From Natronolimnohabitans sp. A-GB9 (GTDB lineage Archaea > Halobacteriota > Halobacteria > Halobacteriales > Natrialbaceae), in contig NZ_JAVDDV010000007.1 in assembly GCF_030848565.1 (NCBI RefSeq), positions 1 through 64,000 on the forward strand: a stretch of DNA of 64,000 nt, written 5' to 3'. Positions 29,419 to 31,932 of this stretch are shown piece after piece. The notes beneath the pieces were generated by a model. The model was given only the letters and a program-made list of their open reading frames with translations, was not told where the DNA came from and made no database searches. Position numbers and translations under genes: made by a program. The number at the start of each line of letters is the position of its first letter. The stretch's first letter is position 1.

Positions 29419-29910
29419 ATGAAGGTTGATCTTGATGCGTCCACTATGGGACGATTTCAACGATATTCGACGTTAATCCTTGGGATAGGACTCCTAATGT
29501 ATGGTGGCACTTTTTTTGTAATAGCTGGTATAGATGCGCCTCTATCGTCGATCGCGGGAACAGTTCTTCTAATTGGTTCGGGAATACTGTTCATCGTATC
29601 GGGAATAGAAGAGACAGTTACCCTTGCTGGTAGAACTGTCCATTGGACACAACTGAACGGCGTCGGAACGATATTGCTCGCAGGTGGATGGATGATCGCG
29701 TCCATTCCGCTTGCCGTTAATTCACCGATGTTTGGAGCGATAACGCTCCTTGGTGGACTGGTACTCGTATTCGTTGGGTATCAAGGAATGACGGACGGTC
29801 CCCACAGCGATCTCGAGACTACTCCTTCGAAAACGAGGATCACTATTTCGATCGTCCTCGCAGTGGCTCTTTTCGTCTTCGGGTTCGTCGTTTATCCAGC
29901 ATACTTGTAA
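29419..29910 (+). CDS. five- or six-helix membrane protein in halocin-like island
   Basis: A 163-aa protein with about five to six hydrophobic segments (TLILGIGLLMYGGTFFVIAG, SSIAGTVLLIGSGILFIVSG, GVGTILLAGGWMIASIPLAV, AITLLGGLVLVFVGY, ITISIVLAVALFVFGFVVY). The family is not recognised. It has lower GC and non-preferred codons such as AGT, CTT and ATA compared with PAN next door. It is convergent with the first halocin-C8-like gene. An immunity or export role is possible only by position. Confidence 0.65.
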   Translation: MKVDLDASTMGRFQRYSTLILGIGLLMYGGTFFVIAGIDAPLSSIAGTVLLIGSGILFIVSGIEETVTLAGRTVHWTQLNGVGTILLAGGWMIASIPLAVNSPMFGAITLLGGLVLVFVGYQGMTDGPHSDLETTPSKTRITISIVLAVALFVFGFVVYPAYL

Positions 29911-29989: not shown

Positions 29990-30898
29990 TTAACAACAGC
30001 CAGGCACGTGGCTTAGCAGACAGCCCGAACACGCCGCGCAACTTACACCGCCGCCGAGACTACAGGCGATCTTGATACACACAGCACACTTGACAGCGCC
30101 GATGCCAGTCGGTGAACCGGCACAAACGAGTGCACAGCGGGAACAACTTCCGACGGATGCGATACAACTGGTGCAGTCAGGGGCACATTCTTCGACCGCC
30201 TCGTCCGGAATACTCGGGAGACTGGGTGTCCAAGCCGTGGAAACCGATGTAGCTCGGATATCGTCGGATGCGGTCGATGTCGACGCGTGATCGAGCCGAA
30301 CGTGATACCGAAGGGTTTGTTCCTCGTTTTCTACCAAACTCTGCGCGCTCCCGGACCGTCGAACGTCGACGTAAAACCCATCGATGTCCGAACCGGTAAA
30401 CGCGGTCGTATCCTCCTGTTGTTCGTCTACGACCGATGCCAATTTTGCGTGCTCAGCATCGGTTGCATGGCGGCGAAACTCGCTTCCGTCGTCCGTCGCG
30501 AACAGTGTCGGACTAGTTTCGTCGGGAAGGTCCGAATAGTTCCGCGGACGGGGACCCTCCTCCGAGAGGAAAAACATCGCTTCCGGCTCGTTATTGTCTG
30601 GTTCGATGTATACTAACGATCCGTACTTGTTCTCGATCTCCGTCACGGTAACGTGAGACTCCTCACCGAGAACCGTCTGCGTTGCTCGGCCTACCGGTAG
30701 TGCGACTCCGCCGACGTCGTCGAGGAGCTGTTGGACCTTCTCCGACGATTCGATTCTCGAGATTTCCGCGCGGTCGACGTCTTTCGATCGTGCTGCGGCG
30801 GTCGACTGTGTGAGTCCAACGGTGCTGATCCCGATACCGCCACCAATCGTCTTCATCACTTTCCGTCGTTCGATCTCTAAGTCACTGTTGTCTGCCAT
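29990..30898 (-). CDS. halocin C8-like precursor with Cys-rich C-terminus (A)
   Basis: A 302-aa precursor. The N-terminal export signal carries a twin-arginine-like ERRKVMKTIGGGIG followed by a hydrophobic stretch. A middle domain (about 45-200) resembles the other precursor at 30988. The last 65 residues (238-302; 30187-29993) hold 14 cysteines with CX3CX2CX6CX2CX3CX11CX2CX4C spacing around GTGIGAV-like TGIGAV. Halocin C8 is made the same way: a Tat-exported precursor whose N-terminal part (HalI) gives immunity and whose Cys-rich C-terminal part is the toxin. Bacteriocin identity is inferred, not shown. It is divergent from gene B with a leaderless promoter. Confidence 0.75.
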   Translation of the reverse strand: MADNSDLEIERRKVMKTIGGGIGISTVGLTQSTAAARSKDVDRAEISRIESSEKVQQLLDDVGGVALPVGRATQTVLGEESHVTVTEIENKYGSLVYIEPDNNEPEAMFFLSEEGPRPRNYSDLPDETSPTLFATDDGSEFRRHATDAEHAKLASVVDEQQEDTTAFTGSDIDGFYVDVRRSGSAQSLVENEEQTLRYHVRLDHASTSTASDDIRATSVSTAWTPSLPSIPDEAVEECAPDCTSCIASVGSCSRCALVCAGSPTGIGAVKCAVCIKIACSLGGGVSCAACSGCLLSHVPGCC

Positions 30899-30922
30899 GC
30901 AACAGTTTCATATATTATTCTA

Positions 30923-30966
30923 TCTATAAAATGTTTTGATAATCAAATTAAAGAATATAAATATCT
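30923..30966. promoter_or_regulatory. bidirectional TATA pair between halocin-like genes
   Basis: The 89-bp spacer is very AT-rich. On the plus strand TATAAATAT (30956-30964) is centred 28 nt before the ATG at 30988. On the minus strand TTTTATAGA (30931-30923) is centred 29 nt before the ATG at 30898. Both distances predict leaderless mRNAs from one compact control region. Confidence 0.65.
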
Positions 30967-30987
30967 GTATGAGTGATACTATATCGT

Positions 30988-31932
30988 ATGTCCGATAGAC
31001 CTACTAAAAGGGAACACGGAATTAATCGACGATCGTTTCTCAATACGATGGGTACCACCGGCGCTGTTGTCGGTCTGGGCTATCTGGGAAGTAATAGCGT
31101 GAGTGCGACGACCGACGTTGATCAGACTCGAATCGACGCCCTAAAAAATACGAAGCCAGTGCAAGAGATCGTCAATGAGTTTGGATCTCTCGATATCGGG
31201 TACGAGACGGCTCGAATGCAGGTCATAGAGGACGAGGAATCCAAATACGAAGTAGTCCACCTCGAAACGAATCTCGGAAAGCTAGAATACTACGAACGCG
31301 ACGGCGAGTCGGAGATGGCACAGCTACGGCTGACCGATCCGGAATCCGACCGGTCGTTCGATCAGGTCCGGGGTCGGCTCCCGGAACAGTATCGGTACTT
31401 GCCGGAAACATCACATACGGTGTTTCTCGCCGGAGAAGGAGGGAAGGGACTCTTTCGGTCACCAACCGAGAACGAACGGACCCGACTCGAACAGGTCGTA
31501 GACGGAGGAGTGGACGACGCGCTCGTCTTTATAAGCGACACGTCCGATGGGTTTCAGGTGATTCGGCACGACGACTCGACGGAAGAGACGGTTGTCAAAC
31601 GGGTTTTGCCCGAGACCAAACGAGCCGACCCGACGGTGAGAAACGATCTCGATCCGGCGTATGCAGCGGTCGAACCCGACGGGTTCGCAAACGCGGACGT
31701 CGTAACCAAATCGCCGGACGAAATCCAAGTGCAGGGTAGCCGAAGCGACTGCATCACCTGGTGTGGGACGTGTGTGACAGGTTCCGCCGTTTGTGTGCGG
31801 TGTGCGATTGCCTGTGCTGGAAGCGTCACGGGAATCGGTGCAGTTGCGTGTGCGGTCTGTCTGGTAGCGAGCTGTAGTGCTGGTGGATACGCCTGTACGC
31901 AGTGTTACGACGATTGCCAGAGTTTCGTCTGA
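30988..31932 (+). CDS. halocin C8-like precursor with Cys-rich C-terminus (B)
   Basis: A 314-aa precursor with a clear Tat signal (GINRRSFLNTMGTTGAVVGL, then a hydrophobic stretch to SVSA). A middle domain (about 35-235) is homologous to that of gene A (compare VDQTRIDALKNTKPVQEIV with VDRAEISRIESSEKVQQLL). The last 60 residues (31750-31929) hold 12 cysteines with the same spacing as gene A and the shared core CAGSxTGIGAVxCAVC. The resemblance to proC8 (immunity part plus Cys-rich microhalocin) is strong in layout. ATG 30988 is chosen by the TATA spacing and the Tat motif. Confidence 0.75.
   Translation: MSDRPTKREHGINRRSFLNTMGTTGAVVGLGYLGSNSVSATTDVDQTRIDALKNTKPVQEIVNEFGSLDIGYETARMQVIEDEESKYEVVHLETNLGKLEYYERDGESEMAQLRLTDPESDRSFDQVRGRLPEQYRYLPETSHTVFLAGEGGKGLFRSPTENERTRLEQVVDGGVDDALVFISDTSDGFQVIRHDDSTEETVVKRVLPETKRADPTVRNDLDPAYAAVEPDGFANADVVTKSPDEIQVQGSRSDCITWCGTCVTGSAVCVRCAIACAGSVTGIGAVACAVCLVASCSAGGYACTQCYDDCQSFV

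What the first reader, a model, noticed from the sequence alone, without database searches (positions are those of the whole stretch)
29990..31932. Divergent pair of halocin C8-like Cys-rich secreted precursors
Seen: two divergent genes with export signals, homologous middle domains of about 160-200 aa and C-termini of 60-65 aa with 14 and 12 cysteines. The first nine Cys share identical spacing, with a shared core CAGSxTGIGAVxCAVC. Known: halocin C8 comes from a precursor whose N-terminal part gives immunity and whose Cys-rich C-terminal part is the toxin. Inferred: this is a two-peptide or paired microhalocin locus, perhaps a paralogous duplication with two-way self-immunity. The shared 89-bp AT-rich leaderless promoter suggests co-regulation. 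I know of no described paired divergent halocin locus.
Basis: partly seen in the sequence, partly recalled or inferred. Interest (0 to 1): 0.85.

Follow-up and report, generated by a model that had tools for sequence, protein, structure and literature searches.

The report
Paired disulfide-ladder halocin-like toxin precursors
Two back-to-back genes of a salt-loving archaeon encode exported proteins whose cysteine-rich ends look like small, disulfide-stapled antimicrobial peptides resembling, but not belonging to, the known halocin C8 family, and the way their cysteines disappear in pairs across relatives reveals how the disulfides are probably wired.

Summary
In detail: two divergent, full-length homologous genes (30% identity) with Tat-type signals, about 200-aa middle domains and C-termini with 14 and 12 Cys. 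The first nine spacings are identical, and each gene has a TATA box at -32.

Neither protein matches the halocin C8 model TIGR04449. The middle and C-terminal profiles do not align significantly with halocin C8's. They belong to an unnamed haloarchaeal family: 52 of 391 genomes have hits, and I read about 50 members.

The main new result: in 51 intact members the 12 core cysteines are lost only in pairs (C2/C11, C6/C7, C4/C9, C5/C8, C1/C12; no exception). Nested pairing is the only zero-conflict pairing of 10,395. This implies a helical hairpin stapled by nested disulfides. Halocin C8 relatives show the same logic, so the two may share a topology.

The pair sits in a low-GC insertion absent from the sister species. 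A small membrane-protein gene, a candidate immunity gene, adjoins 13 of 25 family genes (controls 12 of 117) and 10 of 19 halocin C8-type genes.

Best reading: a two-precursor microhalocin locus of a new halocin C8-like family. No activity, processing or immunity has been shown. 'Two-peptide toxin' and 'two-way immunity' are untested.

The parts
29990..30898 (-). Precursor P_A: Tat-type signal (about residues 1-37), middle domain, Cys-rich C-terminus with 14 Cys
   Evidence: ORF; homologous to P_B; family alignment
29993..30187 (-). Cys-rich C-terminal domain of P_A (residues 238-302): 12 ladder Cys plus a terminal CC
30988..31932 (+). Precursor P_B: Tat-type signal, middle domain, Cys-rich C-terminus with 12 Cys (the in-frame GTG at 30973 is a less likely start)
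31750..31929 (+). Cys-rich C-terminal domain of P_B (residues 255-314), predicted as a helical hairpin with six nested disulfides
   Evidence: coupled Cys loss; four predicted helices at low confidence
30899..30987 (.). Divergent 89-bp AT-rich promoter region, 21% GC
30956..30961 (+). TATAAA, -32 to -27 from the P_B start
30925..30930 (-). TTTATA, -32 to -27 from the P_A start
29419..29910 (+). Small multi-spanning membrane protein (163 aa), candidate immunity protein, 80 bp from the 3' end of P_A; homologues lie directly downstream of family genes in L088 and L093
29282..32042 (.). Variable insertion (53% GC) between the PAN ATPase gene and the M3 peptidase gene, which are about 400 bp or 49 bp apart in relatives

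Best explanation
The locus is an accessory cassette encoding two related but distinct antimicrobial-peptide precursors of a new halocin C8-like family. Each precursor is exported by the Tat pathway, probably already folded. An extracellular protease is expected to cut between the middle domain and the Cys-rich C-terminus. The freed peptide of about 60 residues is a helical hairpin clamped by nested disulfides (C1-C12, C2-C11, C3-C10, C4-C9, C5-C8, C6-C7) around a PTGIGAV-type loop, and acts on the envelope of related haloarchaea. The producer is protected by the middle domain, by the adjacent small membrane protein, or by both. The two genes are co-expressed from a shared divergent promoter, so that two different peptides are released together. 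Shown here: gene structure, homology, family distribution, coupled cysteine loss, promoter elements, the insertion, and the neighbour association. Inferred: disulfide wiring, processing, killing and immunity.
For: Same architecture as ProC8: Tat export and C-terminal release are described for halocin C8 in PMC11509114 and PMC12893001. Cysteines are lost only in nested pairs in 51 intact relatives, with zero discordant cells, the unique best of 10,395 pairings, in 7, 4, 2, 1 and 1 separate absence clades on a tree built from the N-terminal part. Halocin C8-type peptides show the same nested logic (57 peptides; best of 105 pairings, 2 discordant against 8 for the next). A small membrane-protein ORF lies directly downstream of 13/25 family genes against 12/117 control genes (Fisher p 1e-5), and of 10/19 halocin C8-type genes. 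Some relatives head operon-like runs with small ORFs and ABC transporters (DL31, Halocatena salina). The cassette is an insertion of lower GC, absent from the sister species. The N-terminal part of P_B's mature protein is modelled as helix-loop-helix; the title of Mei et al. 2008, seen in a reference list, says such a motif in HalI is essential for immunity.
Against: No sequence match to halocin C8, and only weak C-terminal profile similarity (probability 5%, P 0.007). No cleavage site was identified and no activity data exist for any member. The membrane-protein association is not corrected for kinship, and its homologue in G088 stands at the same site without precursors. AlphaFold models are low-confidence (pLDDT 52 and 62). 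The tree-based coupling test is small on well-supported branches: 2, 3, 1 and 1 independent pairs for C2/C11, C6/C7, C4/C9 and C5/C8, all agreeing but not significant one by one.
Confidence: 0.62

Rival explanations
1. The proteins are disulfide-stabilised surface or matrix proteins, or signals, with no killing role. The Tat-exported, Cys-stapled hairpin serves cell-surface adhesion, kin recognition or signalling, and the middle domain is the functional part.
For: No member has a known activity. The middle domain is conserved in its own right (invariant G, R/T and E positions). The family is patchy, as recognition systems also are.
Against: The family shares neighbours and architecture with halocin C8-type precursors. 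C-termini and precursor combinations are diverse, and ABC-transporter and small-ORF neighbourhoods fit bacteriocin loci.
Confidence: 0.2
2. The C-terminal Cys bind metal (zinc or iron-sulfur), making these exported redox or metal-binding proteins.
For: Several CxxC motifs are present; Tat export suits proteins that fold with a cofactor first (general knowledge).
Against: Metal sites with four Cys ligands should lose Cys in fours or keep them. Here losses are strictly pairwise and nested, with no exception in 51 proteins. No metal-protein family matches in Pfam or NCBIfam.
Confidence: 0.05
3. The active part is not the C-terminal peptide but a fragment of the N-terminal or middle part, released by a halolysin-type protease, as reported for HFX_0892 (HmHapP) of Haloferax mediterranei.
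For: PMC12893001 shows an N-terminal helical fragment as the effector of one haloarchaeal precursor. The modelled middle domain of P_B starts with two helices.
Against: The strictly maintained disulfide ladder points to the C-terminus as the stable extracellular product. Whether HFX_0892 is related was not tested, because its sequence was not at hand.
Confidence: 0.13

Closest known systems
Halocin C8 / ProC8 (TIGR04449 halocin_C8_dom; Natrinema and relatives)
   Same: Tat-type signal, about 200-aa middle part, small Cys-rich C-terminal peptide; Cys lost in nested pairs in both families; frequent downstream small membrane-protein ORF; some neighbours shared (A3 protein). A halocin C8-domain gene also exists in this genome (C56:50582-50785).
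   Different: 12 core Cys (14 in P_A) against 10; different spacing; signature loop PTG[IV]GA; no TIGR04449 hit; middle domains do not align (hhalign probability 0.1%); C-termini align only weakly; two precursors under one divergent promoter.
HmHapP (HFX_0892) protease-activated precursor, PMC12893001
   Same: Secreted haloarchaeal precursor thought to need extracellular proteolysis.
   Different: In HmHapP the active fragment is N-terminal and helical; homology was not tested.
Halocin HA3 of Haloferax larsenii NCIM 5678 (13 kDa; gene not identified in the sources read)
   Same: The plasmid of this very strain carries a family member (KU306_RS16960).
   Different: No evidence that HA3 is its product; the predicted Cys-rich peptide would be nearer 6 kDa.
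Archaeal lanthipeptides (Halorussus salinus, PMC10105419)
   Same: Haloarchaeal ribosomal antimicrobial peptides.
   Different: Cysteines here behave as disulfides; no modification enzyme was noticed among the neighbouring ORFs.

Membership tests
Halocin C8 family (TIGR04449) | C-terminal halocin C8 domain over the curated cut-off | tested here: not met
   No hit at E<=10 for P_A or P_B; genome-wide, only C56:50582-50785 of this genome matches
Halocin C8 family (TIGR04449) | Ten Cys with 2-7-3-7-13-7-8-8-5 spacing | tested here: not met
   12 and 14 Cys with 3-2-6-2-3-11-2-4-... spacing
Halocin C8 family (TIGR04449) | Middle (HalI-like) domain homologous to that of ProC8 | tested here: not met
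   hhalign of mature middle domains: probability 0.1%; in full-length profiles only the signal region aligns
Halocin C8-like precursors (architecture and topology) | Tat-type signal, long middle domain, Cys-rich C-terminal peptide | tested here: met
   formal Tat model just below its cut-off
Halocin C8-like precursors (architecture and topology) | Nested pairing of Cys in the C-terminal peptide | tested here: met
   Family: zero discordance; halocin C8 relatives: best of 105 pairings. Inferred from sequence, not from a structure
Halocin C8-like precursors (architecture and topology) | One gene gives both toxin and immunity | not testable with these tools
   Needs expression of the middle domain in a sensitive strain
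Two-peptide bacteriocins | Activity requires both peptides | not testable with these tools
   Only co-location and a shared promoter region are seen
Lanthipeptides | Lanthionine synthetase gene nearby | tested here: inconclusive
   None noticed among neighbouring ORFs, but not scanned by profile

The most novel reading that the evidence does not exclude
Halocin C8 and this unnamed family are two branches of one superfamily of archaeal antimicrobial peptides, built as a helical hairpin cross-linked by five or six nested disulfides. In this locus two different such peptides are made together from a divergent promoter as a two-component weapon, with a dedicated membrane immunity protein.
Probability: 0.25. 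Interest if true: 0.8.

Novelty: new variant of a known kind. Interest (0 to 1): 0.62.

Why it matters
Archaeal antimicrobial peptides are few and hard to recognise; only halocin C8 has a curated family model that I found. This locus leads to a second, wider family without a Pfam or NCBIfam model, with about 50 members read here. Coupled cysteine losses give a concrete, testable disulfide wiring for it and, by the same logic, for halocin C8, whose wiring I did not find in the papers held. If right, a stapled helical hairpin is a common chassis for haloarchaeal peptide weapons, and genomes can be mined by topology rather than by sequence.

Tried and rejected
Profile searches in Pfam, NCBIfam and solved structures gave no family; PHROGs gave one weak unknown family for P_A (phrog_23815, E 2.7e-6), but tblastn against phages found nothing. 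The search for related loci on genome and viral contigs confirmed nothing. Structure predictions could use only the two window proteins and were weak; Foldseek gave nothing significant. Neighbour A3 ('QPEYTGENRC...' membrane protein) first looked like a specific partner: it adjoins several family and halocin C8-type loci. But it occurs in 358 of 391 genomes, and in a fresh sample only 3 of 40 copies had a Cys-rich Tat precursor within 3 kb (controls 0 of 20), so it carries little weight. Recent tandem duplication of P_A and P_B: not decided by the tree.

Full report
What is there. Two ORFs lie head to head at 29990-30898 (-) and 30988-31932 (+). They are homologous over almost their whole length (30% identity, E 4e-34). 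Each has an RR signal, a middle domain of about 200 aa and a Cys-rich C-terminus with 14 and 12 Cys; the first nine Cys have identical spacing. A seven-Cys spacing pattern from this core occurs exactly twice in the window, once per gene, and never in 100 shuffles. The 89-bp gap is 21% GC and holds a TATA-like hexamer starting at -32 of each start codon.

Not halocin C8 by sequence. Neither protein matches TIGR04449 (halocin_C8_dom) even at E 10. The same genome does hold a genuine TIGR04449 protein elsewhere (C56:50582-50785, 34.5 bits against a cut-off of 24), so the model works here. The exact 76-residue halocin C8 sequence as I remember it was found in L027, so the reference family is right. 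Profile-profile comparison aligned only the signal region in full-length profiles. With larger sets, mature middle domains gave probability 0.1% and C-terminal domains 5% (P 0.007). Membership in the halocin C8 family is therefore not met; a remote relation of the C-termini is possible but unproven.

A family of its own. Whole-genome searches found relatives in 15 of 125 genomes of the taxonomic family and hits in 52 of 391 Halobacteria genomes, in 28 of 86 genera, some of them signal-only. There is a third copy in the own genome (C34:60153-61172). About 50 C-termini were read and aligned. The common pattern is C-x3-C-x2-C-x(6-11)-C-x2-C-x3-C-(loop, typically PTG[IV]GA)-C-x2-C-x4-C-x(6-9)-C-x2-C-x2/3-C. 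Two broken members (L021, L106) were set aside.

Coupled loss of cysteines. In 51 intact proteins, C2 is absent exactly when C11 is absent (23 of 23), C6 with C7 (9 of 9), C4 with C9 (5 of 5), C5 with C8 (2 of 2) and C1 with C12 (2 of 2); C3 and C10 never vary. There is not one discordant cell, and nested pairing is the only zero-conflict pairing among all 10,395. In six proteins I placed some Cys by hand from spacing, plus one column in two more. Without the six, 45 proteins remain, still with no conflict. On a tree from the N-terminal parts, the absences fall in 7, 4, 2, 1 and 1 separate clades, identical for both partners. On well-supported branches alone there are 2, 3, 1 and 1 independent pairs for the first four rungs (the listing for C1/C12 was not printed), all agreeing, too few for significance rung by rung. 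The simplest meaning is six nested disulfides in a helical hairpin. AlphaFold on two sequences gives four helices in the right places but at pLDDT 62, so it is only compatible. In the halocin C8 family (57 different peptides), nested C1-C10, C2-C9, C3-C8, C4-C7 is the best of 105 pairings with 2 conflicts against 8 for the next. The two families may thus share a topology without detectable sequence homology. I did not find the disulfide wiring of halocin C8 in the papers searched.

Surroundings. The pair and a small membrane-protein gene (29419-29910) fill a 2.76-kb interval between the PAN ATPase and M3 peptidase genes. In the sister species G098 these are about 400 bp apart and in G107 49 bp. 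The interval is 53% GC against 64% in its flanks, so it is a gained, variable site. In G088 the same site holds a homologue of the membrane protein (42% identity) and a member of the A3 membrane family, but no precursor. Across family loci, a small membrane-protein ORF lies just downstream of 13 of 25 family genes, against 12 of 117 other genes (p 1e-5, not corrected for kinship). The same is true of 10 of 19 halocin C8-type genes. Homologues of the window's membrane protein sit directly downstream of family genes in L088 and L093. This makes it a candidate immunity protein, next to the alternative that the middle domain protects, as HalI does for halocin C8 (PMC11509114). In archaeon DL31 and Halocatena salina, family genes precede small ORFs and ABC-transporter genes.

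The pair. Multiple precursors at one place recur: tandem pairs in G015 and G002/G003 and a four-gene cluster in G210. Only the window has two family members directly back to back among the loci read. Whether P_A and P_B are sisters is open: the free tree separated them, while holding them together gave a better likelihood, AU p 0.72. Co-expression is suggested by the promoter region; a two-peptide mode or cross-immunity is not shown.

Verdict. I rate the antimicrobial-precursor reading at about 0.62. The coupled-cysteine result is the most novel and most directly testable part.

Noticed in passing
G000 C56:48884-50785 (L077 6882-8795): The window's genome carries a true halocin C8-domain gene with an A3-family membrane protein gene just upstream and a stand-alone piece resembling the pair's middle domain nearby (C56:47398-47640).
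   Followed up: partly
L248 (G246:C1:3413500-3418500), 706-2999: Three tandem Tat-type precursors with a different short Cys-rich C-terminus (CGSDCDxCxCTC...), followed by an A3-family gene: apparently a further class of Cys-rich precursors.
   Followed up: no
L094 5983-6864 (NZ_CP078064.1, KU306_RS16960): The plasmid of Haloferax larsenii NCIM 5678, listed as the halocin HA3 producer in PMC11509114, encodes a family member with a divergent A3 gene and a CAAX-protease gene nearby.
   Followed up: partly
L077 6882-7859, L087 351-1217, L088 5967-6809 and others (A3 family): A strongly conserved unnamed haloarchaeal membrane protein (QPEYTGENRCxPCT...LRGYLVPGTP...ESCC) present in 358 of 391 genomes; some copies are divergent neighbours of Cys-rich precursors; function unknown.
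   Followed up: partly
L299 2560-4520, L300 3090-5060: The PAN to M3-peptidase interval is a variable site: A3 plus a membrane protein in G088, a rhodopsin-like gene plus a membrane protein in G021.
   Followed up: no
L307 3895-4863, L324 4594-5568: Further Tat-type precursors with 14 and 10 C-terminal Cys next to A3 genes, possibly more distant relatives of the family.
   Followed up: no
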